From contig CM068825.1 of assembly GCA_028554795.2 (NCBI GenBank), positions 158,043,053 to 158,107,052 of the forward strand: a stretch of DNA of 64,000 nucleotides, in the 5' to 3' direction. This document shows, piece by piece, positions 28,602 to 49,021 of this stretch. The stretch comes from Sinohyriopsis cumingii. Taxonomy: Eukaryota > Mollusca > Bivalvia > Unionida > Unionidae. The first letter of the stretch is position 1, and the number at the start of each line of letters is the position of its first letter. The position numbers were made by a program, and so were the translations under genes. Below the pieces are notes generated by a model. It was not told the DNA's origin. It ran no database searches and saw nothing but the letters and a program-made list of their open reading frames with translations.

Positions 28602-28910
28602 AGTAGTGAAAGGGGATACCCTAGCGTCAATGGGAAAAAGCATTAAAAAAAACCTTGGGACAATCTGGCATCAATGGAAAATTAACATGGAGAAAAATCG
28701 TGGGACAATCTAGCTTCAAGGGGAATTTAACATGGGAATAAATTGTGGGACAATCTAGCGTAAAGGGGAATGGAACATGGGATTTTTTTTTTTTAAAAAA
28801 AAAATTTTTTAAATTTAAATTTAAATTTAAATTTTTAAAAAAGGGGTAGGCAATTCAAAGGCTATCTCTTTTCGAGAAATATGGGGGCCCTGAAAAGGGC
28901 CTTTGGGTTT
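28602..28910. repeat. Left terminal inverted repeat, with subterminal 45-bp repeats
   Basis: Inverted copy of 48712-49021 with few mismatches. It contains 3.6 tandem 45-bp units (starts at 28621, 28665, 28710 and 28755; core GGGACAATCTAGCGTCAAGG). A self-complementary T/A block follows (about 28782-28842, runs of TTTAAATTTAAA), then a histone-type 3' stem-loop at its inner edge. The repeat array could serve as integrase or replication-protein binding sites; this is inference. Confidence 0.95.
28862..28901 (-). terminator. Histone-type 3' stem-loop and purine-rich downstream element (SL1)
   Basis: On the minus strand GGCCCTTTTCAGGGCC (28886-28901) fits the histone mRNA stem-loop consensus (6-bp stem, 4-nt UUUC loop, AAA just upstream). 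GAAAAGAGATAG (28862-28873) follows, resembling a U7-binding downstream element. The stem begins 22 nt after the stop codon of the gene at 28924-29310. It lies inside the left terminal inverted repeat. Confidence 0.85.
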
Positions 28911-28923
28911 TCTTCTTCTTCTT

Positions 28924-29310
28924 CTAATTTCTTCTTTTTCTCCACCAAGTTCTTATTTTATCTCCTACACTCTTCTTCCCTTTCTTTTTTTTCTTCTCCT
29001 CCTCTTCTTTCTTCTTCTCTTCCTCCTCTTCTTTCTTCCTCTTTTCATTTTCTTCTTCTTTTTCAATTTTTTCGTTCCATTTGCGTATTCTTATTCTTTC
29101 CTCTTCATCCTCCTTCTCCTCCTTTATCTCTTTCATTACACCACTAATCTTGTCCTTTGCTTTTCTTAAGTTATTAATTTCCATCTTTACACGATGGGGA
29201 CTATAGGAATAATGGTCTTCAACGAGTCTTATTAGCATCTGTTCCATTATTCCTAAGTTGTCTAAAACGTCTTGCAAGGTTTGTATTTTGTCCATTTGGT
29301 TTGACGCCAT
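28924..29310 (-). CDS. Small charged coiled-coil protein L1 (histone-type 3' end)
   Basis: A 128-codon frame, ATG at 29308-29310. The N-terminal third contains LQDVLDNLGIMEQMLIRLVE and HRVKMEINNLRKA. The rest is an almost uninterrupted Glu/Lys/Arg helix ending in a basic tail (KIRTWWRKRRN). It resembles the neighbouring L2 and L3 proteins in layout, so the three look like diverged duplicates. A TATAAG box lies 50 bp upstream and the shared promoter cassette lies beyond it. The transcript ends at a histone-like stem-loop in the TIR. Function unknown; the position, promoter and 3' end suggest a regulatory early protein. Confidence 0.75.
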   Translation of the reverse strand: MASNQMDKIQTLQDVLDNLGIMEQMLIRLVEDHYSYSPHRVKMEINNLRKAKDKISGVMKEIKEEKEDEEERIRIRKWNEKIEKEEENEKRKKEEEEEKKKEEEEKKKKKGKKSVGDKIRTWWRKRRN

Positions 29311-29359
29311 CTTCTTTTTATTCTTTGCAGAATGGTTTGAACAACGAACACTGTGGGTT

Positions 29360-29435
29360 CTTATAGTGAAAGCGCGGACGTGAAGGAAAACATCCCCCTA
29401 ATAACATAAAATTGATCTTACCTAGATCATGACCG
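29360..29435 (-). promoter_or_regulatory. Early-type promoter cassette of L1
   Basis: On the minus strand GGGGGATGTTTTCCTTCACG then TCCGCGCTTTCACTATAAG (29360-29400) is preceded by a block containing ATGATCTAGGTAAGATCAAT. The same block and core recur upstream of L2; the core alone recurs upstream of L3. The TATA-like TATAAG is about 50 bp from the ATG. Confidence 0.8.
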
Positions 29436-29670
29436 AACATCGCGCGTATGTGAAGGAAAACATCCCCCTACTTTCTCATTTCATATAATATAACCACAAC
29501 TATACTCTCTACATACGCTAAGAAACCCATAATCTACTATTCACACAAACTTACGTTAACGGTTACAAACAAAAAACACACAAACACACAAACACATACA
29601 CTCTCACTATAAATAAAGAGTTAGTGTTTATATTTACACTACTCTACCTACACACATTGGCAAATCGATC

Positions 29671-29713
29671 GTTATTTCTTTTCTAGAGTATTGGGGTAGC
29701 CCTGAAAAGGGCT
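29671..29713 (-). terminator. Histone-type 3' stem-loop (SL2)
   Basis: On the minus strand AGCCCTTTTCAGGGCT (29698-29713) is followed by ACCCC and then by the purine-rich AGAAAAGAAATAA. The outer G-C pair of the histone consensus is replaced by A-T, but pairing is preserved. It starts 27 nt after the L2 stop codon. Confidence 0.82.
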
Positions 29714-29740
29714 GTTTTTTTGAACTCCTGATGCACCTAT

Positions 29741-30049
29741 CTAATGGTTGCACCGTCCTGGCCTGGCGCCGCACACACATCTTCTTCCCCAGTCTTCTTT
29801 CACCTTTCTTCTGGGAAGCGCAGAGGGAGGATGATTCGCTTCAACACCCCAATCCTCTGTCTCGGGAATATTGAACGACATCCTCTCTTCTCTTTTCTTT
29901 TCCTCTTCTTCCCTCTCTCTTCTCTCCTCCTCTTCTTTCTTCATTCTTGCTTCTTCTATGATAGCCTCCGCTGATAGTTCGTTTACTATGCGCCTGGCAT
30001 ATTCCAGGTGCATCTGGAGTTCTAACAGTTTCACTATTCTGCTAATCAT
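29741..30049 (-). CDS. Small charged protein L2 (histone-type 3' end)
   Basis: 102 codons from the ATG at 30047-30049; an in-frame TTG lies 15 bp upstream, but the ATG is about 54 bp from the TATA box, matching its relatives. The N-terminus MISRIVKLLELQMHLEYARR is helical, followed by an Arg/Glu coiled coil and a Pro/basic tail with CVCGARPGRC. It probably descends from the same ancestor as L1 and L3. Function unknown. The 3' flank (29586-29720) is nearly identical to that of L3 (30388-30524), so the gene cassette was duplicated as a unit. Confidence 0.72.
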   Translation of the reverse strand: MISRIVKLLELQMHLEYARRIVNELSAEAIIEEARMKKEEEERREREEEEKKREERMSFNIPETEDWGVEANHPPSALPRRKVKEDWGRRCVCGARPGRCNH

Positions 30050-30100
30050 TCTTGTGTTGATCAATCAACAAGGGTAGCTAGACTGCCCAGCGAGTTTCAA

Positions 30101-30174
30101 TTTATAGTGAAAGCGCGGACGTGATGGAAAACATCCCCCTAATAACATAAAATTGATCTTACCTAGATCATGAC
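30101..30174 (-). promoter_or_regulatory. Early-type promoter cassette of L2
   Basis: On the minus strand the same core as at L1 (GGGGGATGTTTTCC, CACGTCCGCGCTTTCACTAT, TATAAA at 30101-30106). The upstream ATGATCTAGGTAAGATCAAT block is also present. Confidence 0.8.
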
Positions 30175-30474
30175 CCAAAACAACGCGCGGACCTAAAAGA
30201 AACACTCACTCACTTTTTTATGCTACCCATCACTATTGTAAAATTTTTTATAAATCACTTCAATAGACTATCCACATAAGCAAAGCAATTCAATCTAACC
30301 CCAAACATACACCTCTAACAGCCAAGAAAAACAAACATCATTTTAATCTACTATCCCTACCAACGTACTTAACCACTTACTAACACAAACACACAAACAC
30401 ATACACTTCCACTATTAATAAAGAGTTAGTGTTTATTTTCACACTACTCTACCTACACACATTGGCAAATGGAT

Positions 30475-30517
30475 CGTTATTTCTTTTCTAGAGTATTGGG
30501 TAGCCCTGAAAAGGGCT
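30475..30517 (-). terminator. Histone-type 3' stem-loop (SL3)
   Basis: On the minus strand AGCCCTTTTCAGGGCT (30502-30517) is followed by ACCC and AGAAAAGAAATAA, identical to SL2. It starts 28 nt after the L3 stop codon. Confidence 0.82.
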
Positions 30518-30545
30518 GTTTTTTTGTTTGCTATGGCATTCTTTT

Positions 30546-30893
30546 TTAGTTTCTAAGAATGCGATGTCCTCTGAGGATAGACTTTCTGGCAATAGGTCTG
30601 CTTCTTCGGAAAGAGAAGAAGAACTCTTTGGTGTCGATACGGCAATCGACAAAGCCTCTGTCAGCTTCAGGTTGTTGTTGTTGCTGCTGTTGCTGCTGTC
30701 TCTGAAGTCTGTACTTCTCTGTCCATTCTTCTTTTTCCCTGTTCATTTCTTCTCTGAAGAGCTCTTCTATCAGGTCTTCAGTGATTTTTAACATTCTCAC
30801 ATTCTCTATTTCTTCTGGCTTCGGTATCAGACTGTGTCTGACCCTATGCAGATTCATGTAGGCTTCGTTGAGCTTAGCTAGTTTGGAGCACAT
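30546..30893 (-). CDS. Small charged, poly-Gln protein L3 (histone-type 3' end)
   Basis: 115 codons from the ATG at 30891-30893; an upstream in-frame TTG is less likely given the 55-bp spacing to the TATA-like box. The protein has an N-terminal helical part (KLAKLNEAYMNLHRVRHSLI), a Glu-rich middle, a run of nine Gln and a basic tail. It parallels L1 (HRVKMEINNLRKA) and L2 in order and charge. Function unknown; a DNA- or protein-binding regulator would fit, but that is a guess. Confidence 0.72.
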   Translation of the reverse strand: MCSKLAKLNEAYMNLHRVRHSLIPKPEEIENVRMLKITEDLIEELFREEMNREKEEWTEKYRLQRQQQQQQQQQPEADRGFVDCRIDTKEFFFSFRRSRPIARKSILRGHRILRN

Positions 30894-30944
30894 CTTCGTA
30901 GGAGGATGAGTCGACAATGGATGGTTAGACTGGGAACAAACCGG

Positions 30945-30990
30945 TTCTTAAAGTCAAAGCGCGGACGTGAAGGAAAACATCCCCCACACG
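30945..30990 (-). promoter_or_regulatory. Early-type promoter cassette of L3
   Basis: On the minus strand TGGGGGATGTTTTCCTTCAC then GTCCGCGCTTTGACTTTAAG. The TATA position carries the weaker TTTAAG. The second upstream block seen at L1 and L2 is absent. Confidence 0.75.
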
Positions 30991-31102
30991 GTTTTTCGAG
31001 CCGCAACGTTCATGAGAGGGATAGTAAGAAATGAAAGAGCATCAATCCAACATTCTTATAGCTAAACAAAAGACAAAAGCATTTTTTCAAAACACAACAT
31101 TT

Positions 31103-31108
31103 TTTATT
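31103..31108 (-). terminator. Polyadenylation signal downstream of the protease gene
   Basis: AATAAA on the minus strand about 110 nt after the protease stop codon. No histone-like stem-loop is found here, so the structural gene block appears to use ordinary polyadenylation. Confidence 0.6.
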
Positions 31109-31218
31109 CAAAAATCACTTAACACTAAACAACAACTCTAACATTTTTAACAATAATCCAACACTATAACATCAAACAATTGTTTTCAAATCACAAACAT
31201 TTTTTCTCAATGCACAAT

Positions 31219-31779
31219 CTACTTTAAACTGGGCTGACAACGTTGTGAATGAAATTGTGATTTCCACTGTTGGAAATCATTAGGCCATTGATGGACACTA
31301 CGTTTCCTAGCTTGAGACAAAAGATAAGCATAATGGTCACAAAACCATCGATCTACTTTCACATCGTTTCTAGCAGAAGAACGAGGATCGAAATGAGTCA
31401 CTAAATGTTCTAAGGAATAGCCCAGGCTGCGATGATGCAGAAAATACACACAGTACTGTCCACACACCAAGGAATCTGTGCCTTGTAATTTCACATTATT
31501 GAATCGGGTGGTTTGAGCATTTCTTCTCATAAAGTCGATGATATCGTCTTCCAAAGGGGGCAATCCGTACGAATCAAAATATTCCACACATCCTTCTTGA
31601 GGAAAGTAGACGGCTACCCAGTGGGTTCCTGGGAGATGACTGTCGTCCGTGTTGATCACGTAAGCTTGATGGTCTTTAGGTTTGCGATGAGGGAGTTCAT
31701 CTTTAGCACAGACGACAGGATTCCAAGAAGCTGTATACGAACTGTGGTTCAAAAGGTAATAAAGTTCCCAGGTATCCAT
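31219..31779 (-). CDS. Adenain-like cysteine protease (Polinton PRO)
   Basis: 186 codons, ATG at 31777-31779. It shows the adenovirus protease signature in order: His53 in GTHWVAVYF, Asp69 in EYFDSYG, Gln99 in KLQG and Cys106 in SLVCGQYC. The seven-residue Gln-to-Cys spacing is that of adenain. These proteases mature capsid and core proteins in the particle. The gene is the last of the minus-strand structural block, downstream of the capsid genes. All catalytic residues are present and the frame is intact. Confidence 0.95.
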   Translation of the reverse strand: MDTWELYYLLNHSSYTASWNPVVCAKDELPHRKPKDHQAYVINTDDSHLPGTHWVAVYFPQEGCVEYFDSYGLPPLEDDIIDFMRRNAQTTRFNNVKLQGTDSLVCGQYCVYFLHHRSLGYSLEHLVTHFDPRSSARNDVKVDRWFCDHYAYLLSQARKRSVHQWPNDFQQWKSQFHSQRCQPSLK

Positions 31780-31807
31780 TGATTTGTGTGTGTTTTTTTG
31801 TTCTTCT

Positions 31808-32296
31808 TCACAGGTAATAATAAGTCATCAATTCGATCCTGACTTTTTGCTTGAAAATGTCTGACGAATAAACGGTTATTCGTTCTGTTTCCTCACTCTG
31901 ATTCAGGAGAGCTTCGATACGATGGATCTCTTGAGTGGTTAATGGTGGACAAGAATGTTCACACAAGTCTTTATACCACTGGTGCAACACGTCTTTGTTC
32001 GAGATGAGGCTCCAAGCTTCGTCCAGAAACTCGTCCAATTTTTCTTCTTGACTCAACATCAGGCATTTATCGTGTTGAATTTGACTGGGATGATCGTTTT
32101 GACATCCATAGCAATTTTTCTTGATCAATTCCGTCATTTTGTCGACCAAGTGTTTGGCAAAACAGGAGACTAAATGGGCTTCTTGTTCTGGCCATCTCGA
32201 TTTCATCATGATCACTTCTTCTTCTTTTTCCACGGTCTCCTTACATTCCATCTCCAAAGTTTCTCCACTAGGTAAAGAGGGATAACAGTCTTCCAT
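31808..32296 (-). CDS. Conserved Polinton protein with CxGC...DHPSQ motif, function unknown
   Basis: 162 codons. A central motif NCYGCQNDHPSQIQHDKCLM contains three Cys and two His residues that could bind zinc. I have seen similar motifs in many animal Polintons between the protease and capsid genes. The flanks are acidic. It lies 28 bp upstream of the protease ATG and 5 bp downstream of the capsid gene stop, so it is probably part of the same transcription unit. No enzymatic signature. Confidence 0.8.
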   Translation of the reverse strand: MEDCYPSLPSGETLEMECKETVEKEEEVIMMKSRWPEQEAHLVSCFAKHLVDKMTELIKKNCYGCQNDHPSQIQHDKCLMLSQEEKLDEFLDEAWSLISNKDVLHQWYKDLCEHSCPPLTTQEIHRIEALLNQSEETERITVYSSDIFKQKVRIELMTYYYL

Positions 32297-32301
32297 ACCT
32301 T

Positions 32302-33603
32302 CTAATAATCTAGAATGACTTCTCTCAAACTGTTGATTTCTATCGTATTATCGAATTCTGCATACAGGATGACGTTCACTGTCGCTGGTAGTTCTTTTGT
32401 AAACTGAAGTTCCACACGAATCTGGCCAGATTTTATAGGGTGGAAATGTTCCTCGTCGCTGCCTTGGTCTGGAGTGAAATCGAAAGCCCACAAAGCATAG
32501 CCTCCTGCATAATCCTCGTACTCAATGCCGTGACTGGTGTTGGTTCCTAACTGACCCGTGGCTTCGTACAGGGACAAGTACGATCTCAAGTAATTTTTGT
32601 TGGCAAAGTCAGGTTCGAAAGGTCGGGTACACAAGGTCTTGCCATCGCGACTGACTTTGATTTTCTTCACGTCGAAGTGTTGAAAGTTGAAAGGATTTTC
32701 TTTGAAGGCTCCGTTGAAGGCTGAATTCAGGACCATACCAAGGATTAAACGCTTGGGTAACTGTCCTTGAAACAGATGATCTTCGGTCATAGAATGCTGT
32801 CCCTTGGGAATGGTGAACGTTTTCACTTCCACACGTCGGATGGGATACTTGGCAGTCGTTCTGCTCAACGTTTGACTGATGTCGTTACCCACTTTGGGTA
32901 ACACTTCCACGTGTCGTACGTAGAGTTTGGCCTCATGGATTATGCTTTTAGGAGCCTTAGTAGAATCAGCAGCCTGCAAATGGAAAGCGGCACTGCTGCG
33001 ATTCAGTCTCAAGCGGACATTGACCCCGTTCAGCAAATACTTCTCTTGCAACCACATGTCCAAATGCAAACGATCCATCAGTTCTAAACTCTTTTTACCT
33101 AGGATTTTCTCTTCTCTTGCCTCAAAGCCGGAATTGCTTGTATCTATTGTGTCGAACTTGCCCGCTGTGTCAGGTACCCACAGCACACAGGCATTGAGAT
33201 GACTATCCTTGGCATCTGTTCCGTACGTCAAGAGATTTTCCAGGTAGGCACGGTAAGGGTAAGTATCCATGCTGCTGCTGACCAGTTTGTTATTCAAGTA
33301 CAAATCCACTGAGCTGAACAAGGAATGCATGAAATTGTTGACGGGAGCTATTTCGTCAGTGTCATCTACTCCACTATCATCTTTTTCTAGAACTTGGACT
33401 TTCAAGTACAAGTAACTGCTATTCAGATTGATGTAATCTTCGGGCTGTCCTTTGATTTCAAACTCGATGGGAGCGGAATCGGTCAATGAGGAGACGGGAT
33501 GAAATTCCACCCATTGGGATTCTTGCATGGTCATCATGGTGGGGGGCATGGCAAACAGATCCAGTTCCGTCTTGAAACAAGCGCAAGACTCTCGGTGCAT
33601 CAT
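32302..33603 (-). CDS. Major capsid protein, double jelly-roll (Polinton MCP)
   Basis: 433 codons, ATG at 33601-33603. The sequence has the hallmarks of the animal Polinton capsid protein, often labelled 'F54H12.2-like': NNFMHSLFSSVDLYLNNKLV, TYPYRAYLENLLTYG, YLLNGVNVRLRL, then AKYPIRRVEVKTFTIPKG, FNGAFKENPFNF and a final LYAEFDNTIEI. The family forms trimeric double-jelly-roll capsomers related to those of adenoviruses and phycodnaviruses. The frame is uninterrupted and of normal length. It sits between the core-like gene and the DHPSQ protein. Confidence 0.93.
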   Translation of the reverse strand: MMHRESCACFKTELDLFAMPPTMMTMQESQWVEFHPVSSLTDSAPIEFEIKGQPEDYINLNSSYLYLKVQVLEKDDSGVDDTDEIAPVNNFMHSLFSSVDLYLNNKLVSSSMDTYPYRAYLENLLTYGTDAKDSHLNACVLWVPDTAGKFDTIDTSNSGFEAREEKILGKKSLELMDRLHLDMWLQEKYLLNGVNVRLRLNRSSAAFHLQAADSTKAPKSIIHEAKLYVRHVEVLPKVGNDISQTLSRTTAKYPIRRVEVKTFTIPKGQHSMTEDHLFQGQLPKRLILGMVLNSAFNGAFKENPFNFQHFDVKKIKVSRDGKTLCTRPFEPDFANKNYLRSYLSLYEATGQLGTNTSHGIEYEDYAGGYALWAFDFTPDQGSDEEHFHPIKSGQIRVELQFTKELPATVNVILYAEFDNTIEINSLREVILDY

Positions 33604-33616
33604 TTTGTTCTGTGTT

Positions 33617-34036
33617 TCAATAATCGAAAACGTCTAAGTCTCGAACGGTTCTTCTTTTCTTGGCCTTTCTCGCTTGAAGTCTGGTGAAAGGGTGTTTTCT
33701 TCGTCGTCGTCTCTTTCTGCCTTGTCCTTGCTGAATGCCTGACTCGGTAGCGTGCAGGGCATTTATAGGTGTGTCTCGTCGGCCTAAAATGTCTTTACCC
33801 GTTTGCAGCAAGACATTTTTGCCTGCCCTCATGAAGGCTTCTTTAGGGTTTTGTTTGTCGATGATGACATTTTGGAGAAATTCTTTGCCTTGCGTCAGTG
33901 CCGCATCTTTCAAGGCGTGCAATCCGCGTGTCACCATCGGTTTCAACACCGGGGCCACCGAACGAAAGGCCGATTTTAACATGTCTCCTAAACCGTGTCC
34001 TCGCTGTCGTGCAACCCCTCGGTACACTGGATACAT
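33617..34036 (-). CDS. Basic core or pVI-like protein
   Basis: 139 codons. The N-terminus GHGLGDMLKSAFRSVAPVLK is an amphipathic helix after a Gly-rich start. The C-terminus carries strong basic clusters (RKRRRRRKHP, KAKKRR) that would act as nuclear localisation or DNA-binding signals. A small gene of this make-up between the two capsid genes is typical of Polintons and has been likened to adenovirus minor core/pVI proteins; here that is inferred from composition and position. It lies 13 bp before the capsid ATG and 3 bp after the penton gene. Confidence 0.75.
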   Translation of the reverse strand: MYPVYRGVARQRGHGLGDMLKSAFRSVAPVLKPMVTRGLHALKDAALTQGKEFLQNVIIDKQNPKEAFMRAGKNVLLQTGKDILGRRDTPINALHATESGIQQGQGRKRRRRRKHPFTRLQARKAKKRRTVRDLDVFDY

Positions 34037-34039
34037 GAC

Positions 34040-34978
34040 TTACGAGTCGTGAGAGAACCGTTTTCGAAAATGGAGTTTCACCGTGACTTTTCCTTTGGTG
34101 AATGGAATATTTTGTCCCAAATCTCCTTTTATAGTAATGTTGACTGTGTCCAAATACGACTTGCTGACGGGCAAATAGTGAGGATGGACAAATTCGCGGT
34201 GGACGTGATAAGTGTTTCCACCTTCCTCGTCAGCATTCGTGGCAGAATCCACTTTGAAAGGAATGACACGCAGTAACGGTACGGAGGTGTGTCCCACCAC
34301 GTTGTATTCCACCACATCGGAGTACACAAAGATCAAATTCAGTCCTTGGTTCAGTTCTACCGGGGTACGAAAATACTTGGTAAAAGTGTCGTTGTCGAAA
34401 ATGCCTGGTGATTCGCCTTTTTCTTCTACTTTCTTCCTCATCTCCATGTCACCGCCCAACATGTCAAACAATCCAGGACAAAATAAAATGGTTACGATTT
34501 TAGGCCGTTCAAATTTTATTAAGAAGCGACGAGCTACTTTGTGGTACTCCATGGTGATACTTTTGTTCTTGACATTGACACTCTTAAAAGCTTCCCCAAA
34601 CACACCATTAAACTTGGTAGCTATGGTGTTGACCAAATGTTGACCACTGAAATAATAGCCTGCGGGAATCACCAAGTTGTAGGTCCACGTTTTAGTTTTG
34701 TCATCATAGGTTTTATTGCTATATGTGCCAATCTTATCCAACTCTTGTTGCAATTGTGAGTCATGAACTTCCACCGTAAAAAAATTTTGATGGGTAATGA
34801 CATTGAGGACTTGGGTTGGGTGAATCATTTCTACCAAAGCCACTTCCCAATGGGCTTCGTGATCTAAGGGGATGGCTTGAGGTAATTTGGCCGTGTAACA
34901 GCACAACGTGTTATTGGGAAACACCTCCATGGAACTGTCACTGGGTAAGGTTAAGTAAAATTGGTTTTGGTGACTCAT
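34040..34978 (-). CDS. Minor capsid (penton-like) protein
   Basis: 312 codons, ATG at 34976-34978. Typical Polinton minor capsid features: N-terminal FYLTLPSDSSMEVFPNNTLC followed by HWEVALVEMIHP; a middle part with TYNLVIPAGYYFSG; and a C-terminal VNITIKGDLGQNIPF close to FRKRF. The family has a single jelly-roll fold like vertex pentons. It overlaps the upstream membrane-protein gene by 4 bp. Uninterrupted. Confidence 0.9.
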   Translation of the reverse strand: MSHQNQFYLTLPSDSSMEVFPNNTLCCYTAKLPQAIPLDHEAHWEVALVEMIHPTQVLNVITHQNFFTVEVHDSQLQQELDKIGTYSNKTYDDKTKTWTYNLVIPAGYYFSGQHLVNTIATKFNGVFGEAFKSVNVKNKSITMEYHKVARRFLIKFERPKIVTILFCPGLFDMLGGDMEMRKKVEEKGESPGIFDNDTFTKYFRTPVELNQGLNLIFVYSDVVEYNVVGHTSVPLLRVIPFKVDSATNADEEGGNTYHVHREFVHPHYLPVSKSYLDTVNITIKGDLGQNIPFTKGKVTVKLHFRKRFSHDS

Positions 34979-35385: not shown

Positions 35386-35390
35386 GATGG

Positions 35391-36503: not shown

Positions 36504-36527
36504 TTTTTTATTTTTTGTGTTGGTGTG

Positions 36528-37247: not shown

Positions 37248-37290
37248 GGGGTTGTCAGGGGTGAATTCTGAGATCTTGGGACTTCCGAGG

Positions 37291-41056: not shown

Positions 41057-41068
41057 GAATAGGTCATA

Positions 41069-41922: not shown

Positions 41923-41933
41923 GGTAAGTTACT

Positions 41934-42677
41934 TCAGTGTCTCGGTCCCACTAAGGGTAAGTAACGACAATTCGGTGACCATCGAGCATGTTCTACGTAG
42001 GCCGAATCTTGCGGTTCCCAGTGGTGAAGTGACACACCGCAACTGAAGCACCTGACTTTATCTCCTTCGCCCAAATAGAAAAATCCGGCTCTGGCTAATT
42101 CTTCGGGGGTCGGGCCTCCCAGATACTTAGGCCATTTTCCTTTGAACGATTGAAGACGATTTTCAAAGTCGCAGTATTCCAACAAACGCACAGGAAACGA
42201 ATATTCGTCTTTCACAGGTTCGTTTCGATGAGGGTTGGGTGACAGGAACAGGAGTTTGCTCAGGGCTGGATGACATCCGTAGGGGGGTAGACGTGAAGGT
42301 GAACATTCCCCTTTAAAACGAAACCCAGTAAAATGTCCAAGAGGACAAGCGGCATCACTTTCGCATCCCACAGGTTTGACACGCACAGCATCACTTTCCA
42401 TGATAGGGGTAGGGACACTAAAGTTCCCATGATGCTTTACGGCATCGCTCAGGTCACAAGGTACAGCATCATACCCATCGCAAGGCTCACAATCGCACTC
42501 GTCTGCAAACTCCGTTACGCAATTACAATGGTAACCACATGGACAATCGCAGTTTCCTTCCGGACATTTTCCGTCGCAATGTCTGGGTCTTATCCATCCA
42601 ATATTAGTCACACTAGAGGAAGATACAACTTTTTTACAATCCCCAAACTGGAACGATGTCTCTTTCAAAGAATTCAT
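41934..42677 (-). CDS. BIR-domain protein (inhibitor-of-apoptosis type) with Cys-rich N-terminus
   Basis: 247 codons, ATG at 42675-42677. Residues about 173-241 form a BIR domain: RLQSFKGKWP, then TPEELARAGFFYLGEGDKVR, with zinc ligands Cys210, Cys213, His230 and Cys237 in the canonical C-x2-C-x16-H-x6-C spacing. IAP BIR domains bind caspases or IAP antagonists, so a role against host apoptosis is plausible by analogy with other large DNA viruses. No RING is present. Residues 34-74 are unusually Cys-rich (CDGKCPEGNCDCPCGYHCNC) and may form a further metal-binding module. A TATA box lies 56-66 bp upstream, inside the polymerase 3' end. Confidence 0.9.
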   Translation of the reverse strand: MNSLKETSFQFGDCKKVVSSSSVTNIGWIRPRHCDGKCPEGNCDCPCGYHCNCVTEFADECDCEPCDGYDAVPCDLSDAVKHHGNFSVPTPIMESDAVRVKPVGCESDAACPLGHFTGFRFKGECSPSRLPPYGCHPALSKLLFLSPNPHRNEPVKDEYSFPVRLLEYCDFENRLQSFKGKWPKYLGGPTPEELARAGFFYLGEGDKVRCFSCGVSLHHWEPQDSAYVEHARWSPNCRYLPLVGPRH

Positions 42678-42722
42678 CTTGTTCGCTTGGTCTTGGTAGT
42701 CACAATGAACTATCGATCTTGC

Positions 42723-43868
42723 CTAGGGTTCCTTTTTTATATACAGACCAATACCGACGTGACCGTACGGTAAGGTGAAATGATTGGGAAGTCGAACTCG
42801 CTTCTGGTACACGATTTGATAGACTTTTTCCAGGGGTCGACTGACGATGTGGTGAGTGGGTAAACGTACAATCTTGTTCGGTTGGTGAGTGGTCACTTTA
42901 AAGTTTCCATCCTCTCCCGATTGCAAGGCTTCTTTCAATACCCCAAAGTTGACCACTCGACTGGTACGATAATTCAGAGTCAGTCCTTTCACTTTGCACG
43001 TCGTGTGCACTTCTCCTTGTGGGTCCCGGTATTCGTAGCCGTAATTTTTGGGACCGCCACTGACGAAACTTAGAATCTTGTCGTCGGGATGCTCGTCTGT
43101 CCAGGCTCCTAAACGGTCTCCTTCGATGTTAGGGTGATGTTGAATCGGGTGATGGATGTAAATGCAACTGTCCGTGTCAAAGTACAGGACGCGTTCTTCT
43201 AACAGTTCTAAAGCTTCGTACAATTTTAAGCGAGCATGAGCTGTCACGTAAGCCGCAATGATGACATTTCCAAAGGGGTCGTCTTGTACAAAGTCCAGAT
43301 CTTCTTCGTAATTGACCAAGATCAAATTCTCTCGAACGACGTCCACGTGTTTCATGTATTTGGTTTTGTCGTGAATCATCTGGAAGTAGCGGGAAGGTTC
43401 TGTCAAATATTCCGTCTTGGGTAAACACGGTCGTTGTGCCATTTTACCCCACAAGCAATTTAACATCACTTTGGCAAACGATCGCCTGCCTTCGTTTTTC
43501 TCGATGTGGTCTAAAGAGATGCCTTCTTGTTCGTAGTATTTCTCTTTGAATTGTATTTGGTCTTCGGGAGTGTGACACCAGGAAGGATAGCCGCTGGCTT
43601 CTTGCTTCAGTTTCAAAAAGGCATCCACGTAGTCGGCGAAAATGCCTTTCTGACTGGGATCACCCTTGCGGTATTGTTGTGTCTTGGGAAAGTGGCAAAT
43701 TTCGTACACTTCTAACAGTTGGTATCCCATGTCCAAAGCTTTGAACAATTCTACGCTGACCCAGGTTCCCGTCAAGGCCCGTTCTTCCTGGCTGTGATGA
43801 CAGGCTGGTCTTGGTTGCACGTTTCGGCACAAGTACGGCACAAGGGAAACATCAGTTTGCCTTGACAA
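42723..43868 (-). pseudogene. Family B DNA polymerase, C-terminal fragment (motifs B and C)
   Basis: Third part of the polymerase, in a different frame from the two parts to its right. It contains Pol motif B (KVMLNCLWGKMAQR, Lys133) and Pol motif C (YFDTDS, Asp231 and Asp233), then KVKGLTLNY and thumb sequence to a normal end. The open frame starts upstream of any Met in a 97-bp overlap with the previous frame (43772-43868). The point of frameshift is judged to lie near 43800-43815, where similarity passes from one frame to the other. The catalytic residues themselves are all present. The polymerase is nevertheless broken, so DNA synthesis by this copy would need a partner in trans. Confidence 0.9.
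42733..42743 (-). promoter_or_regulatory. TATA box of the BIR gene
   Basis: TATATAAAAAA on the minus strand, about 60 bp upstream of the BIR ATG. It overlaps the last codons of the polymerase gene. Confidence 0.6.
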
Positions 43869-45184
43869 TGGTGAGGTAAGACGGGATGGTATAGGTTCGT
43901 GGGAGGCAAAACTTTACACTTGATCAAGCCTTCGTATTGTCGAATGTTTTTCAGGTCGATGTGTTCCGTCAGCAATTGCGGGTGCCCTACAGGAAAGCGA
44001 CAATATTTGCACACGTAGGGATACAGCGAACACACGTCCAAGTATTTGATTTCTTCTCCTTTCTCTTCGTCGGCTTGGTACAGCAAACAGGTGGCATTGG
44101 TCCTTCCTCCGTACAAACTATCCCTCGGGTTCAGCGGGTCCATGAACTGGTAACTTTCCATGAGGCGTTTAAACTCGGGATCGGTTTTCATACGGTGATC
44201 GTACTCGTGTTCCCACATTTCCACCACTTGGTATCCTTGCTGTTCTAACTTTAGGCGTCGCTGACAAGTGTCCTGGTACAAGTCTTCCATGGTTCGTTGC
44301 AAAAACTGATTTTTAGTGCCACGGTCAGGGTAACAAACGGGACATCCGTGAAATAAGCAACCGTTAAACTCGTACACGATCTTGGGGTTTTCTAAGTCCC
44401 AGCCATCGACTGAATACGTTCCGATGGTCTTTTCACCCCCTCCGTTGCGGGCATGCTGAATCCACTTGTCTTCCTTGTCGCACAAGTAATGTAACCAACG
44501 TAGGGCTTTGACCGAGTATTGACATTTGACAAAGTGGGTCGTTTGAGGGCTGATGACAGCCACGGTGTTTTCAGGCATGAATCGTTGTCGATACACTAGG
44601 GAACACGCTTTGACAATGGTGCAAGCTTCTTTCAAAGGATCGACCCCTCCGTGTTCCATGAACAGTTCTCGAAATTTTCCACAGCAACGCCGTAAAATGT
44701 CCACGTCGGAACGACAATACTTTAGCATTTCTTCCTGAAAGTCGAAAGGGTCCGAGGCGTGAATCTGGTACCAAGCGTAGAAAGCTTCTCGTTGTTCGGT
44801 ACGCATGTTGTCGGGGTCGTAATAGTGAGCCTCAGGCAAATGGGGTAGAACGGCGTGTTGATTGGCTTCCGTATTGAAAAAGTGTGGAAAGTACCCTTTA
44901 GCCATTTCTGTCATTCCAAACGTTTTAGGCATTCGACTCAAAGGCATAGCCAAGTAACTCATCGAATCTTTAAACTGCACTTGTCCCACTTGCATGAAAA
45001 TGATTTTGGCTCCGTTCAAAGTCACTTTAGGACGCTCGGTGCCTTGTTCCGTATAGTATCTGAGAAGAAACTGTCCATCGTATCCGGAAAAATTGTGAGC
45101 CATCACTGTGGCATGACGATGACAATTTCCGTAACGTTCGATGTCCTCTTGGCTCCACGTCTTGTCGATGGGGTCTAAGACCCA
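43772..45184 (-). pseudogene. Family B DNA polymerase, middle fragment (Exo II, Exo III, motif A)
   Basis: In the same frame as the N-terminal part but separated from it by one TGA codon at 45185-45187. It carries Exo II (AHNFSGYDGQF), Exo III (YCRSDVDILRR) and Pol motif A (YLDVCSLYPYV, with the catalytic Asp and the SLYP of protein-primed enzymes). Between them lies YEFNGCLFHGCPVCYPDR, a Cys/His segment typical of Polinton polymerases. Protein priming and proofreading are the family's activities. The fragment ends at a stop (43772-43774) shortly after the presumed frameshift. Confidence 0.92.
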
Positions 45185-46768
45185 TCAGGCAAAATCGACT
45201 AACGTGTTTGGTCCCCGAAAGATTTTTTCACGTCCTCCAGGAATCTTGCTGCAGTGAGGGCAATGACTGAAGATAGGTTCTTGAATGCACTTCTCGCACG
45301 CTCGATGAGCCATGCAGAAATTAGGGATGTGAATGCCAGTCTCTTGCATGCATTCGAAATCGAAAAAGATGAAATTGCCTTTCTTCTTGTGACCGTCCTC
45401 TTTCCCTGGTGGGGGTTGGTATTTTTGCACGTAACATTCGTGTTCCAAGTCCACGATGTGGTGACAAATGTGACATTTTTTCTTTCCTGAACATGCGTGT
45501 GCCTTGGTATTATTGGTACGTATGACTTGTTCACACGTAGAGCACAATCTCAGGAGTTGACAAGCGCATTTCTTCTGTGAATCTTGCGTCTTCAGATGTT
45601 GTTGGTAACAGGTAGGGCTGACAAACATGCGCAGACAAGTTGAACAAGGCACTGGTTCTTCGCTCAGACAGGGTGAAGAGGCCAAACATCCTGGGCATTT
45701 CGATCCACAGTGCTTGTGTTGCTCTCGATTGTTATAACCATAATCACATTTCTCACAATAATAACCGTATCCTAGGAATCCAGTGATAATGGTAATGGTA
45801 TCGAAATGGCCATCGTGATGATAAACATGAATGTATTTTCCGTCCTTAAAGTCTTGGCCTCGAAACAACAGAGGTCCGCGCACTTCTTGAGGGTGCACTT
45901 TCAAGGTGTATCGTGGAGCTAGGGCATCTTGCAATTTTTGCATCTCAGGAATGCCACAGGGTGTGTCTTTGGACAGGCCAGCTTGTTGTAACAGGAGTTC
46001 TGCTTCCTTTCGTTGTTTGGCTCGGTCGGATTGTTGAATAGTTTTCCAGGTTCTTTTCCATTCTACCGTGTTGTTCTTGTTGGCATAGGTTCGTCCCACC
46101 ACGATGGCACGGGCTAAACACATCTGGTCATGAGGGTTGTTAATTCGGACGAGACTTGTTTTGGTGTTGCGAAGGTCGTCCACCAATAACATCTTTTTGC
46201 GTCCTGTCCCTTGAGGAGGAGAGATGTGGGTCATGTCCAGTGTGGCTTTACCATCGGTGATGTCAAACTGGTCATTAGATTGTTGTACGTGTTGAATCTT
46301 GTCCATGACTTTGGAAGCAGTCAATTCTGCAGGGGTGCTAAACTCGATCCAAACAGGGGATTTCAAACCGTCGTGTTGTATGGAAAGTCTCAAGCGATCG
46401 TCTTCTTTGGGTTGACATTGTCGCTTGAGTGCAGTGAGCAAAGAATCCCACACCTCAGTGATGAACACTTCTGCTTTCTCTAACGGCACTTCAGCCTTGA
46501 AATCTTTAAACTTCACTGTGTATTTGTAAGCCGTGGTTCTAAATTTTCTAGAGGAGCGCTTTTCCGTCTCTCGAATGGAATAGTATTTTTCAGGGTTGAC
46601 TAAGGGTGGTGAACTTGGTTTAGAGGGTTCGTATTCTGGTTCACTCATGTCCTCTTCAAAATCACTGGCATGAATTTGTGCCAAGATTTCAGCCCTGGTA
46701 CGAGGCGATAGATCACGTTTCTGCCTCGTACTTTCTTCTTTCTTCTCGAATGAATTAGATCGTTTCAT
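45185..46768 (-). pseudogene. Family B DNA polymerase, N-terminal fragment (Exo I, Cys-rich region)
   Basis: 527 codons, ATG at 46766-46768. After a Lys/Glu-rich start it has CLARAIVVGRTYA, then a Cys/His-rich array from about residue 340 (CEKCDYGYNN, CGSKCPGC, CSTC, CHICHH) suggesting several zinc sites. Exo I follows near residue 470 (FIFFDFECMQ). It ends at an in-frame TGA between Exo I and Exo II; the continuation on the other side keeps the frame, so this is a simple nonsense change. A TATA box (CTATAAAG, 46814-46821) lies about 50 bp upstream and faces the CCHC gene's promoter. The first fragment alone lacks all polymerase motifs. Confidence 0.92.
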
Positions 46769-46902
46769 CTTGAAAGCAAAAAGTCAAATGACTCAAGTTC
46801 AAACACCATGAGCTACTTTATAGTCATAGCAGACCAGCGTATATAAAAGGGTGCGTGTCTTGTCCTTTCACTATTCATTTCACTCTCAAGCCGAGCACAA
46901 CG
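46769..46902. promoter_or_regulatory. Divergent promoter between polymerase and CCHC gene
   Basis: Two TATA boxes face outward: CTATAAAG on the minus strand (46814-46821) for the polymerase and TATATAAAAG on the plus strand (46840-46849) for the zinc-knuckle gene. Each is about 50-55 bp from its ATG, the same leader length as the other end-proximal genes. Confidence 0.75.
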
Positions 46903-47436
46903 ATGGAAGAGACTAACCAGATGGAACGTTTCGTCAGAGCTTTGCGAGGGGTCATTAGAAAATTCTCTTCAGACCAGCCTACGGACTACTCTCCTTCCTT
47001 TAGAGATAAAAGTCAAGATACTTGCTGTATCTGTCAGAAGAAAGGGCATTGGTCTTCAGAGTGTCCAGACCGTCAAAAAAGAACAAAAACAGGGACTAAA
47101 AAAGACAAAAGTCAAGATACCTGTTATTATTGTAAAGAAAAAGGACATTGGTCTCCAGATTGCCCAAAAAAGAAACAAGAGGAGTCAGAAGAAAAGAGGG
47201 ATTCTTCAGAAGAAGAGAGGAATTCTTCGGAAGAAGAGAGAGATTCTTCAGAGGAAGAAGAGGAAGAAAAAAGACAATTCTATTTACAAGAGGCAAAGAA
47301 ACAGGAAAAGAAGAAAAGAAGAAGGGAAGAAAATGAGGAAAAGACGGTGAAGAAATTCAAAAAAACAGAGAGACTAAAGAAGGAGAAAGAAGAAGTCAAT
47401 GAACTTTTTATTAAAGTGTCGTGTTGTGAATTGTGA
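46903..47436 (+). CDS. CCHC zinc-knuckle protein with acidic repeats
   Basis: 177 codons from the ATG at 46903-46905; a GTG further upstream is rejected because it lies within 15 bp of the TATA box. There are two retroviral-type zinc knuckles, C41-x2-C44-x4-H49-x4-C54 and C74-x2-C77-x4-H82-x4-C87. They sit in repeated contexts (KSQDTCCICQKKGHW, KSQDTCYYCKEKGHW), so one arose from the other. Three RDSSEEE-type acidic repeats and a Lys/Glu coiled coil follow. CCHC knuckles bind single-stranded nucleic acid; in a Polinton this could aid replication or packaging (inference). It is one of only two plus-strand genes and ends with AATAAA at 47464-47469 rather than a histone stem-loop. Confidence 0.82.
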   Translation: MEETNQMERFVRALRGVIRKFSSDQPTDYSPSFRDKSQDTCCICQKKGHWSSECPDRQKRTKTGTKKDKSQDTCYYCKEKGHWSPDCPKKKQEESEEKRDSSEEERNSSEEERDSSEEEEEEKRQFYLQEAKKQEKKKRRREENEEKTVKKFKKTERLKKEKEEVNELFIKVSCCEL

Positions 47437-47463
47437 ATTGGATTGTAAAAAAATGGATAAAAG

Positions 47464-47469
47464 AATAAA
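47464..47469 (+). terminator. Polyadenylation signal of the CCHC gene
   Basis: AATAAA 28 nt after the stop codon. Confidence 0.55.
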
Positions 47470-47601
47470 TGAATGATATAAGGTAAGAGTCTTTGAGTTA
47501 TGATTTTAAAATAAGAACGTACACTCACGCACTCATACACAGACACGTACTATAAGGGTAAAATGGGTGGGTTTTTTTTGAGTTATTGGCAAATTGAAAT
47601 T

Positions 47602-47642
47602 GTATTTCTTTTTGAGAAATGTGGGTGGCCCTGAAAAGGGCC
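47602..47642 (-). terminator. Histone-type 3' stem-loop (SL4), best match to consensus
   Basis: On the minus strand GAAAGGCCCTTTTCAGGGCC runs directly into ACCCAC, exactly the metazoan histone mRNA layout (AAA, 6-bp stem, UUUC loop, ACCCA). It is followed by CAAAAAGAAATA, resembling the histone downstream element. The stem (47627-47642) starts 25 nt after the R1 stop codon. Confidence 0.88.
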
Positions 47643-47667
47643 TTTCTATTTTGGTGTAGGGGTGAGT

Positions 47668-48243
47668 TTAAGCAATCAACTTTAACTGCCTTATGCCTTT
47701 GCCACGGCCAAGGCCTACTTCTGGACTGCGTAATGTTGATGATGATTGGGTTGAAATCACTAAGGGTGGTACGGTAGGCTTAGTCACAGGGTTGACGTGT
47801 TTAGCTCGGGAAGGTCGTATTCTCTTCGGTCGTGATAAAGAAGTCTGATACATTTGTTTCAGACTTCTTGACTCCGCTAAAATGTCCAACAGTACCGTGA
47901 CCGTTTGATTTTCACCCTCTTGTTTCTTTGCTGCTACTTCTTCTTGCTGTTGTTGCTGTTGTTTTTTTCTTACCTCTTCTTCTTGTTGCTGTTGCTGTAG
48001 GAGAAAAGCCTGTTCCGCTTCCTTTTGTCGTTGTATAAATTTCTCCAATTCTTCTTTTTGTCTCTGTCTAAAATTCTCCACTTGCGGTAATGAAGAAGGT
48101 AACGAAGGTTCCGGAACAAATTCTTGCGAGGAGAGAAAATCCACAAAATCCCAATTCACCTCTTCTGAAAGTAAGTCCAGGTTCCCTTGGGCAGTCTCCC
48201 CTGTTGGTGCACCCCAATGGATCGTTTTCTGAGTTTCCGTCAT
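47668..48243 (-). CDS. Gln-rich coiled-coil protein R1 (histone-type 3' end), possible transcription regulator
   Basis: 191 codons, ATG at 48241-48243. The N-terminus is acidic with aromatic residues (EEVNWDFVDFLSSQEF), like an activation domain. A long Gln/Glu coiled coil (about 60-110, with QQQQQ runs) follows, then LLDILAESRSLKQMYQ and a basic region (RPKRIRPSRAKH). A transcription-factor-like role is inferred from composition only. A TATATAG box lies about 50 bp upstream. It shares a promoter region with the divergent R2 gene. Confidence 0.75.
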   Translation of the reverse strand: MTETQKTIHWGAPTGETAQGNLDLLSEEVNWDFVDFLSSQEFVPEPSLPSSLPQVENFRQRQKEELEKFIQRQKEAEQAFLLQQQQQEEEVRKKQQQQQQEEVAAKKQEGENQTVTVLLDILAESRSLKQMYQTSLSRPKRIRPSRAKHVNPVTKPTVPPLVISTQSSSTLRSPEVGLGRGKGIRQLKLIA

Positions 48244-48462
48244 GTTGAATCACTGTCGCATATATTGACTGCACACAAGCGCTAGCGAATCTATATAGAC
48301 TACGTGACGTCACAGACTGCTCTCTTCGGATTGGATGCGGGCTGACTGAATTTCGTAACGCGTGTTCGGATTGGTGAATGAACTCAATCCGTTTCAATCC
48401 TACCTGTACCTATAAATAAGCGCAGTTCAGTGCATTGATTCACCTGTTCTCGTCGCTTCAAG
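48244..48462. promoter_or_regulatory. Bidirectional promoter with CRE and two CCAAT boxes
   Basis: Contains the palindromic CRE TGACGTCA (48305-48312) and two CGGATTGG elements that are CCAAT boxes on the minus strand (48330-48334, 48370-48374). TATATAG (48292-48298, minus) serves R1, and TATAAATA (48411-48418, plus) lies 52 bp before the R2 ATG. CCAAT and CRE elements are common in cell-cycle-regulated host promoters. Confidence 0.75.
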
Positions 48463-48696
48463 ATGTGGACCACAGTTGAGTCATCCACCCTTGTGTCTTC
48501 CATGATGCTTCGGACAGACTTGCTCATGTATGTCCGATCCAAGTGGACCGTTGTCCACAGGACAAACACCAGCCTGTGGATACGTAGGATTTACGTGGAG
48601 AGGCAAGGATGCCTGAAAAGAGTGCTGGTTTACGGGCCAACAGTGAGACGCAGCCTAAGGACAAGAAGAAGACCAATGCGGTGTCCTTTATGTTAA
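48463..48696 (+). CDS. Small basic protein R2 (histone-type 3' end)
   Basis: 77 codons, ATG at 48463-48465, well placed 52 bp from TATAAATA. Arg-rich second half (RRSLRTRRRPMRCPLC) and a central WTVVHRTNTSLWIRRIYVER. No family recognised. It is the outermost right gene, transcribed outward; its histone-like stem-loop starts 24 nt after the stop and lies in the right TIR. The conserved gene-to-stem-loop spacing supports it as a real gene despite its length. Confidence 0.65.
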   Translation: MWTTVESSTLVSSMMLRTDLLMYVRSKWTVVHRTNTSLWIRRIYVERQGCLKRVLVYGPTVRRSLRTRRRPMRCPLC

Positions 48697-48711
48697 TGAA
48701 TACATTAACAT

Positions 48712-49021
48712 AAACCCAAAGGCCCTTTTCAGGGCCAGCCATATTTCTTGAAAAGAGATAGCCTTTGAATTGCCTACCCCTTTTTTAAAAATTTAAATTT
48801 AAATTTAAATTTAAAAAAAATTTTTTTTTAAAAAAAAAAATCCCATGTTCCATTCCCCTTGACGCTAGATTGTCCCACGATTTATTCCCATGTTAAATTC
48901 CCCTTGACGCTAGATTGTCCCACGATTTTTCTCCATGTTAATTTTCCATTGACGCCAGATTGTCCCAAGGGTTTTTTTAATGCTTTTTCCCATTGACGCT
49001 AGGGTATCCCCTTTCACTACT
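48712..49021. repeat. Right terminal inverted repeat
   Basis: 310 bp, inverted match to 28602-28910, ending CCTTTCACTACT. It has the same 45-bp subterminal repeats and the same self-complementary A/T block (about 48783-48841). Confidence 0.95.
48721..48763 (+). terminator. Histone-type 3' stem-loop (SL5)
   Basis: Plus strand CCAAAGGCCCTTTTCAGGGCC (stem 48721-48736), then AGCCA, then the purine-rich TTGAAAAGAGATAG. It is the TIR counterpart of SL1 and serves R2. Confidence 0.85.

What the first reader, a model, noticed from the sequence alone, without database searches (positions are those of the whole stretch)
28862..48763. Five Polinton genes end in histone-mRNA-type 3' stem-loops
Seen: five copies of a 16-nt hairpin with 6-bp stem and UUUC loop (GGCCCTTTTCAGGGCC or AGCCCTTTTCAGGGCT) at 28886-28901, 29698-29713, 30502-30517, 47627-47642 and 48721-48736. 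Each is on the coding strand, 22-28 nt after a stop codon. Each is followed by ACCCA-like sequence and then a purine block (GAAAAGAGAT, AGAAAAGAAA or CAAAAAGAAA) about 10-15 nt on. Established: replication-dependent histone mRNAs carry GGYYYUUHUHARRRCC, ACCCA and a U7-binding purine-rich element, and are cleaved without polyadenylation. Inference: these five genes use SLBP/U7 processing, giving S-phase-linked, non-polyadenylated mRNAs. The other genes in the element show none. I know of no description of this in Polintons.
Basis: partly seen in the sequence, partly recalled or inferred. Interest (0 to 1): 0.95.

Follow-up and report, generated by a model that had tools for sequence, protein, structure and literature searches.

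The report
Polinton genes dressed as histone genes
A virus-like mobile element, present in thousands of copies in this large, probably bivalve, genome, gives its small outer genes the RNA ending of the host's histone genes, and three of them a piece of histone promoter too, so they are probably made as tail-less messages when the cell copies its DNA.

Summary
Confirmed and strengthened. The five hairpins are exact and correctly placed. All five match Rfam RF00032 (histone 3' stem-loop), two above the gathering score. They represent about three independent lineages: two are the inner ends of the terminal inverted repeats, two lie in a duplication.

The window lies in a 2.9-Gb eukaryotic genome with 34,230 exact hairpin matches; the hairpin plus AAAAGA at 8-16 nt is counted 32,814 times. 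In one host histone repeat unit, H3, H4, H2B, H2A and H1 end in the same kind of element: same stem-loop type, 14-15-nt spacing, CTAGAAAAGA in four of five. The three left Polinton genes also carry a 22-nt word of the host H2B/H1 promoters (20-22 of 22 letters) just upstream of a TATA box. Of 60 gene cassettes picked by that motif, not by the hairpin, 55 have the hairpin, all 55 with AAAAGA.

Best reading: these non-histone genes are built as replication-dependent-histone-type genes, giving S-phase, SLBP/U7-processed, non-polyadenylated mRNAs. No RNA data were available, host U7 was not found, and the two right-hand genes lack the promoter word. No earlier report came up in the library searched.

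The parts
28602..49021 (.). Polinton element (20,420 bp), flanked by 6-bp target-site duplication GACATA at 28596-28601 and 49022-49027
   Evidence: terminal repeats and TSD; genes typed by Pfam and MCP relatives
28602..28910 (.). left terminal inverted repeat; its inner end is the g1 histone-type 3' element
   Evidence: alignment of the two ends
48712..49021 (.). right terminal inverted repeat; its inner end is the g5 histone-type 3' element
   Evidence: alignment of the two ends
28924..29310 (-). g1, 128-aa charged, coiled-coil-like ORF reading outward into the left TIR
   Evidence: TATAAG at -55
28862..28906 (-). g1 histone 3' element: hairpin 28886-28901 plus HDE GAAAAGAGAT
   Evidence: RF00032 32.2 bits
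29741..30049 (-). g2, 102-aa ORF
   Evidence: TATAAA at -57; 18 g2/g3-type elements compared
29674..29718 (-). g2 histone 3' element: hairpin 29698-29713 plus HDE AGAAAAGAAAT
   Evidence: RF00032 29.3 bits
30546..30893 (-). g3, 115-aa ORF
   Evidence: TTTAAG at -59
30477..30522 (-). g3 histone 3' element: hairpin 30502-30517 plus HDE AGAAAAGAAAT
   Evidence: RF00032 31.0 bits
29372..29390 (-). histone-promoter-type motif of g1 (a second copy with 2 mismatches at 29442-29460)
   Evidence: 21 of 22 letters shared with host H2B promoters
30113..30131 (-). histone-promoter-type motif of g2
   Evidence: 22 of 22 letters shared with the host canonical H2B promoter
30959..30977 (-). histone-promoter-type motif of g3
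   Evidence: 21 of 22 letters shared
47668..48243 (-). g4, 191-aa ORF with conserved EEVNWDFVDFLSSQEFVPEP segment
   Evidence: 10 database relatives; TATATA at -54
47603..47647 (-). g4 histone 3' element: hairpin 47627-47642 plus HDE CAAAAAGAAAT
   Evidence: RF00032 39.7 bits
48463..48696 (+). g5, 77-aa ORF reading outward into the right TIR, divergent from g4
   Evidence: 2 database relatives; TATAAA at -52
48716..48761 (+). g5 histone 3' element: hairpin 48721-48736 plus HDE GAAAAGAGAT
   Evidence: RF00032 36.9 bits
46903..47436 (+). zinc-knuckle gene with its own TATA (-63/-61) and AATAAA 28 nt after the stop: contrast gene with an ordinary poly(A) signal and no hairpin

Best explanation
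Five small non-core genes at the two ends of this Polinton are built like replication-dependent histone genes of the host. Pol II starts at a TATA promoter; for the three left genes this promoter carries a host H2B/H1-type word. The transcript is cut just after the 3' stem-loop by the SLBP/U7 snRNP machinery that processes host histone pre-mRNAs. The mRNA therefore ends in the stem-loop with no poly(A) tail and should be made, translated and degraded with S phase. The core genes (polymerase, capsid, integrase, protease, ATPase) lack the element and presumably use ordinary 3' ends. The likely use is to confine the accessory, probably regulatory, proteins to cells that are replicating DNA. The sequence architecture and its agreement with host histone genes are shown here; processing, lack of a tail, S-phase timing and the regulatory role are inferred.
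For: (1) Five exact hairpins on the coding strand, 22-28 nt after stops, all matching RF00032. (2) The canonical histone repeat unit read in the same genome (L163) carries the same element after H3, H4, H2B, H2A and H1: RF00032 35.0-39.4 bits, stem to AAAAG core 14-15 nt, CTAGAAAAGA in 4 of 5. Variant H2B genes in two tandem arrays have the identical 16-nt hairpin 27 nt after the stop. (3) A host H2B/H1 promoter 22-mer is present at 20-22 of 22 letters at about -85 of g1-g3; shuffles of the variant H2B upstream region reach at most 17; controls zinc-knuckle, PolB and MCP reach 13-15 against H4, H2B, H2A and H1 (H3 not compared). (4) TATA-like box at -52 to -59 in 5 of 5; 0.8% background per 8-nt window (post hoc). 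(5) Genome-wide, 34,230 exact hairpins and 32,814 counts of hairpin plus AAAAGA at 8-16 nt; reversed-pattern controls 0. (6) Of 60 cassettes chosen by the promoter motif, 55 have the hairpin (44 exact; 49 fully paired), 55 of 55 have AAAAGA within 24 nt (48 at 14 nt), and 42 of 53 stop-to-stem gaps are 21-32 nt. (7) In 18 g2/g3 elements not used as bait, identity is 0.99 in the hairpin and 0.98 in the HDE versus 0.56-0.66 upstream. (8) The outer pair changes G-C to A-T on both sides between types.
Against: No RNA evidence at all. Host U7 was not found, but that search also rang in 0 of 14 control genomes; a U7-like pattern search did not complete (last try). g4 and g5 lack the histone promoter word (at most 15 of 22). 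Lack of AATAAA is weak evidence because the signal is rare in this element, and g3 has one at +109. In g2/g3 the conserved block runs to about +100, not only hairpin plus HDE. 5 of 60 motif-chosen cassettes have no hairpin and 6 of the 55 hairpins have an imperfect stem; two right ends picked by their g4 hairpin have a broken g5 stem (L109, L114). The one relative outside this genome with DNA, L066, shows no element, but it is an 8.4-kb broken fragment without ends. SLBP was not looked for. Only one canonical histone repeat unit was read.
Confidence: 0.88

Rival explanations
1. The palindrome is a DNA element of the terminal repeats (replication start, packaging or integrase site) and its histone likeness is incidental.
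For: Two of the five copies are the inner ends of the TIRs.
Against: Three copies are internal, on the coding strand 25-28 nt after a stop. The purine core and spacing match host histone genes. Stop-to-stem distance stays mostly at 21-32 nt in cassettes whose ORF lengths vary.
Confidence: 0.04
2. The hairpin is a site of hairpin-guided polyadenylation or termination of the kind described for some giant viruses, not SLBP/U7 processing (that precedent is recalled, not looked up).
For: Hairpins just after stop codons; few AATAAA signals nearby.
Against: The sequence is histone-specific (loop TTTC, second G-C pair kept, ACCCA-like flank, AAAAGA at about 14 nt) and matches host histone genes. No T-run follows the hairpin. 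The zinc-knuckle gene of the element has an ordinary AATAAA at +28.
Confidence: 0.04
3. Passive relic: fragments of a host histone gene were captured, duplicated within the element and never used.
For: Promoter word and 3' element both resemble host histone genes, so capture is a likely origin.
Against: The elements flank open, conserved non-histone ORFs, and hairpin, HDE and spacing are conserved above their upstream surroundings across copies. The linkers of the Polinton elements differ from those of the six sampled host genes.
Confidence: 0.04

Closest known systems
Replication-dependent histone genes of metazoa (Rfam RF00032 3' end, SLBP/U7 processing)
   Same: Stem-loop sequence and size, ACCCA-like flank, purine HDE at about 14 nt, 20-40 nt after the stop, TATA promoter; three genes share the host H2B/H1 promoter word
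   Different: The proteins are not histones; the genes lie in a mobile DNA element present in thousands of copies. [quoted passage not shown]
Polinton/Maverick elements and adintoviruses
   Same: TIRs, 6-bp TSD, PolB, chromodomain integrase, A32-type ATPase, a weak adenovirus-protease match, capsid protein with bivalve relatives
   Different: No histone-type promoter or 3' end in such elements came up in the listings of ten paper searches
Viruses that encode histones (bracovirus H4, giant-virus histones; PMC9145170, passages seen)
   Same: Viral use of the host histone system
   Different: There the protein is borrowed; here the expression signals are borrowed for non-histone proteins. The held main text of that review contains neither 'stem-loop' nor 'SLBP'

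Membership tests
Histone-type 3' end (RF00032) | 6-bp stem, 4-nt UUUC-type loop, family score | tested here: met
   5 of 5 match; 2 of 5 above gathering, 3 at 29.3-32.2 bits, below it
Histone-type 3' end (RF00032) | Purine-rich HDE about 14 nt after the stem | tested here: met
   5 of 5 in the window; 55 of 55 hairpins in motif-chosen cassettes
Histone-type 3' end (RF00032) | Agreement with the host's own histone 3' ends | tested here: met
   H3, H4, H2B, H2A, H1 of one repeat unit and a variant H2B
Histone-type 3' end (RF00032) | Base pairing of the HDE with host U7 snRNA | tested here: inconclusive
   U7 family search had no match and no control rang; pattern search did not complete (last try). 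Indirect: HDE core shared with host histones
Histone-type 3' end (RF00032) | No polyadenylation signal | tested here: inconclusive
   None within 120 nt for 4 of 5 genes, but such signals are rare in the element
Histone-type 3' end (RF00032) | Tail-less mRNA, SLBP binding, S-phase expression | not testable with these tools
   needs RNA and cells
Replication-dependent histone gene | Encodes a histone | tested here: not met
   No core-histone match for any of the five proteins at E <= 0.1 and nothing above a Pfam cut-off; g1, g3 and g4 have only weak sub-cut-off hits (g1 TAF4 E 0.0014, g4 MAT1 E 0.0091), likely from charged repeats
Replication-dependent histone gene | Promoter word of host H2B/H1 genes | tested here: met
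   g1-g3 20-22 of 22; not met for g4 and g5 (at most 15 of 22)
Polinton/Maverick | TIRs and 6-bp TSD | tested here: met
Polinton/Maverick | PolB, integrase, ATPase, protease, capsid genes | tested here: met
   DNA_pol_B_2, rve plus Chromo, Pox_A32; Peptidase_C5 weak at 16.3 bits, below its 21.3 cut-off; capsid by 1172 MCP relatives, no Pfam match itself
Adintovirus | PolB with N-terminal OTU-like domain | tested here: inconclusive
   The N-terminal ORF 45185-46768 has no Pfam match at E <= 0.01; no profile comparison made
Bacterial-type intrinsic terminator | Hairpin followed directly by a T-run | tested here: not met
   The stem is followed by ACCCA-like sequence in all five

The most novel reading that the evidence does not exclude
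A mobile DNA virus-like element runs a whole class of its own genes on the host's histone programme, promoter and 3' end alike. Its transcripts would be made and processed at histone locus bodies and locked to S phase. With about 27,000 exact promoter words and 34,000 exact hairpins in the genome (host H2B genes included) against at least 150 histone matches (a lower bound), the elements could act as a sink for, or selective force on, the host histone-processing machinery.
Probability: 0.35. Interest if true: 0.96.

Novelty: new variant of a known kind. Interest (0 to 1): 0.9.

Why it matters
Histone-type, tail-less mRNA has been described as unique to replication-dependent histones in animals (abstract of PMC6303110). 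Finding it on non-histone genes of a mobile element, with a matching host histone promoter word, would widen that class, explain how a Polinton could time accessory genes to S phase, and provide thousands of natural variants for studying SLBP/U7 recognition. It is directly testable in any poly(A)-independent RNA data set from this host.

Tried and rejected
Chance: 0.05 hairpins expected versus 5. Phage-like terminators: the same 16-mer was found in 65 stretches of the 2.9 million viral contigs, once in each; none fits the full element model R1 at E below 0.001. The best, L057 (E 0.0035), is a phage-like contig by its genes; it reaches 24.8 bits for RF00032 and lacks AAAAGA after the hairpin. 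The 21-letter pattern GGCYCTTTTMAGRGCCACCCA has no match there. Relatives: MCP and g4 found none in viral contigs; genome contigs gave one broken fragment, L066. A plain longest-common-word test between the variant H2B upstream region and the element (13 nt) was not significant, shuffles reaching 17; the ungapped 22-mer test was. The AlphaFold model of g5 has low confidence (mean pLDDT 66) and no fold match at E <= 0.001. U7: family search empty and its control silent. No other histone signature peptide was found in the 64 kb fetched around one H2B array (exact peptides only, 100 bases masked). Absence of AATAAA was judged weak evidence.

Bias: the first copy sample (L067-L074, L076-L117) was picked by the exact hairpin, so its hairpin conservation proves little. 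The second sample (37 stretches, L125-L162 without the H2B array L143) was picked from the 100 places listed by the promoter motif, mostly places outside stretches fetched before; I did not take all 100. In one search I left out 7 motif instances with under 1000 nt downstream and 1 upstream member of a doublet before counting 60. One search counted overlapping loci twice and included the window and 3 host H2B elements: 88 of 105 gaps at 21-30 nt, 6 of 111 elements without an ORF. Recounted by place, without the H2B array: 78 of 95 gaps at 21-30 nt, 3 of 98 places without an ORF (not every locus was placed by genome coordinate, so a few doubles may remain).


Full report
WHAT WAS CHECKED. The five hairpins are real and exact. 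With two mismatches allowed, the window has these five and no others, against 0.05 expected from shuffles. Each is on the coding strand, 22, 27, 28, 25 and 24 nt after the stop of a small ORF, and a purine run starts at the 13th-14th nt after the stem. The Rfam model of the histone 3' stem-loop (RF00032) matches all five: 39.7 and 36.9 bits for g4 and g5, above the gathering score of 34; 32.2, 31.0 and 29.3 bits for g1, g3 and g2, below it. No other place in the window matches that model up to E=1.

THE ELEMENT. The terminal repeats align from 28602 to about 28910 and from about 48712 to 49021 and are flanked by the 6-bp duplication GACATA. Between them lie PolB in three ORFs, a chromodomain integrase, an A32-type ATPase, a weak adenovirus-protease match and a capsid protein with 1172 database relatives; the animals named among the best 120 are Mercenaria, Crassostrea, Saccostrea and Ostrea.

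INDEPENDENCE. The g1 and g5 elements are the inner ends of the two TIRs, so the outermost genes on both sides read outward into the TIR and stop there. The g2 and g3 elements lie in a 143-nt duplication of 87% identity. g4 is a third type. In an alignment of the five, the stem keeps all six pairs; its outer pair is G-C in three and A-T in two, a change on both sides. The purine core stays AAAAGARAT.

SAME GENOME, HOST HISTONES. The window lies in a 2.9-Gb genome. The first listing of hairpins showed a regular array with 1.85-kb spacing; this proved to be tandem H2B genes with the identical 16-nt hairpin 27 nt after the stop (Pfam Histone). A second such array is L143, with three genes read. 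A family search gave 150 scored histone matches out of 662 candidates, most in repeats of about 8.3 kb. One repeat unit, L163, holds H3, H4, H2B, H2A and H1, each followed by a hairpin of the same type and by CTAGAAAAGA (H2A: CCCGAAAAGG), its AAAAG core 14-15 nt after the stem, at 35.0-39.4 bits. Stop-to-stem gaps are 28 (H3), 27 (H4), 35 (H2A) and 38 (H1) nt; the H2B of that unit has an early stop at 91 aa, so its gap of 136 does not count. Side by side, the Polinton elements look like the host histone elements.

PROMOTERS. All five Polinton genes have a TATA-like box at -52 to -59; such a box begins in 0.8% of 8-nt windows of the element (the window was chosen after looking). Upstream of the box, g1, g2 and g3 share a repeated motif, four instances in the window with up to 3 mismatches. 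The variant H2B promoter has the same word: 21, 20 and 21 of 22 letters for g1, g2 and g3, while 100 shuffles each reach at most 17. The canonical H2B promoter gives 21, 22 and 21, H1 gives 20, 21 and 20, and an H4 upstream word matches g2 at 19. The controls g4, g5, zinc-knuckle, PolB and MCP reach 13-15 against H4, H2B, H2A and H1; H3 was not compared because the stretch starts too close to it. So three genes have a histone-type promoter word and all five a histone-type 3' end; g4 and g5 have a different, divergent promoter. A simpler exact-word test was not significant.

COPIES. The exact 16-mer GGCCCTTTTCAGGGCC occurs 16,943 + 17,287 times in the genome, the reversed-letter control 0 times. 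The pattern of that 16-mer with AAAAGA at 8-16 nt is counted 16,265 + 16,549 times, control 0. The 13-letter promoter word TTCACGTCCGCGC occurs 13,551 + 13,831 times, its control 1 + 3. These counts include host H2B genes. Hairpins often come in facing pairs about 1.1 kb apart, which are the g4/g5 right ends. In hairpin-picked stretches, copies with g4 at 61-97% and g5 at 78-97% protein identity keep the elements, with exceptions: g5 stems are broken in L109 and L114 and have a wobble pair in L070. Counted by place, 78 of 95 stop-to-stem gaps are 21-30 nt. Because that sample was picked by hairpin, I took a second one by promoter motif: of 60 cassettes examined, 55 have a hairpin (44 exact, 10 with one mismatch, 1 with three), 49 of these have a fully paired stem, 55 have AAAAGA within 24 nt (48 at 14 nt), and 42 of 53 gaps are 21-32 nt; 5 have none. 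Other left-end genes, such as one of 198 aa in L073, have the same promoter spacing and 3' element. In 18 g2/g3 elements not used as bait, pairwise identity is 0.986 in the hairpin, 0.90 in the linker, 0.98 in the HDE, 0.56-0.66 upstream, but also 0.89-0.95 from +41 to +100, so the constraint is not limited to hairpin and HDE.

OTHER SOURCES. g4 has 10 and g5 has 2 database relatives. Two of them, P0127 and P0122, run past the usual stop, and their tails (WPISGPPTSLEKRYYVNCQFQ; QKPFSGPLTLLENIYYVNCQ) read as a translation of hairpin, linker, purine core and the ATTTGCC-like stretch; this is my reading of protein letters, their DNA was not seen, and both seem to carry a changed base in or next to the stem. 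P0121 reads PINKR upstream of its start, which fits CCTATAAATAAG, the TATA box.

MECHANISM. Known (PMC7026596 and PMC9756948, passages seen): the U7 5' end pairs with the HDE, whose mouse purine core is AAAGAG; SLBP binds the stem-loop; CPSF73 cuts between stem-loop and HDE; active U7 processing is present in histone locus bodies only in S phase. g1 and g5 contain AAAGAG exactly; g2-g4 contain AAAGAA, as does the variant H2B. Shown here: the architecture and its agreement with the host's histone genes. Inferred: processing, tail-less mRNA, S-phase timing, and that the products are regulatory. No function could be given to the five proteins: no Pfam match above cut-off; the g5 model is a low-confidence beta sheet without a good match.

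KNOWN OR NEW. Ten answered searches of the paper library listed no paper on histone-type 3' ends in Polintons, other mobile elements or DNA viruses. 'Polinton' together with 'histone stem-loop' gave 0 papers. The library is open-access only, I saw listings rather than all texts, and searches matched more papers than were listed. [quoted passage not shown] In the held main texts of a review on viral histones (PMC9145170) and a survey of animal viruses with adintoviruses (PMC11071296), of which I saw passages, the word stem-loop does not occur.

VERDICT. Observation confirmed; interpretation supported at sequence level and extended to the promoter. What is missing is RNA evidence, the host U7 sequence and a view of other species.

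Noticed in passing
whole genome G000 (window = C2:158043053-158107052): Very large Polinton expansion: 34,230 exact hairpins and 27,382 exact promoter words suggest on the order of ten thousand copies.
   Followed up: partly
window 41934-42677 (-): Polinton gene with a BIR (inhibitor-of-apoptosis) domain, Pfam E 1.5e-23.
   Followed up: no
window 42723-46768 (-): PolB is spread over three ORFs separated by stops; not clear whether this copy is broken or the gene is normally split.
   Followed up: no
about 10-15 nt 3' of the HDE core in the element types, e.g. window 47586-47594 (g4, minus strand): A conserved ATTTGCC-like stretch (ATTGCC in the TIR types) follows the HDE in the Polinton elements; no clear counterpart was seen in the host histone genes apart from a loose likeness in H2A. 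Function unknown.
   Followed up: partly
L075 (C1:5073300-5077300) and L143 (C1:7352000-7357800): Separate tandem arrays of a variant H2B gene, period about 1.85 kb, apart from the canonical histone repeats.
   Followed up: partly
L163 2285-2560: The H2B copy in this canonical histone repeat unit has an early stop at 91 aa.
   Followed up: no
window upstream of g1 and g2, about -115 from the ATG: A splice-donor-like CTAGGTAAGATC is shared by both, upstream of the TATA box.
   Followed up: no
upstream of g2 (-150): A second histone-like word, 19 of 22 letters as in the host H4 upstream region.
   Followed up: no
L066 (NZ_JASJAV010000039.1): A contig filed under a bacterial Breoghania MAG is a broken Polinton fragment, so probably eukaryotic contamination.
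   Followed up: partly
window 28641-28775 and 48841-48975: Each TIR holds three 45-bp direct subrepeats.
   Followed up: no
L101 2295 (C1:5122034 +): A hairpin plus AAAAGA about 1 kb outside a right end, after a short remnant resembling an alternative left-terminal gene.
   Followed up: no
window 17481-17553 (-): tRNA-like match just above the gathering score.
   Followed up: no
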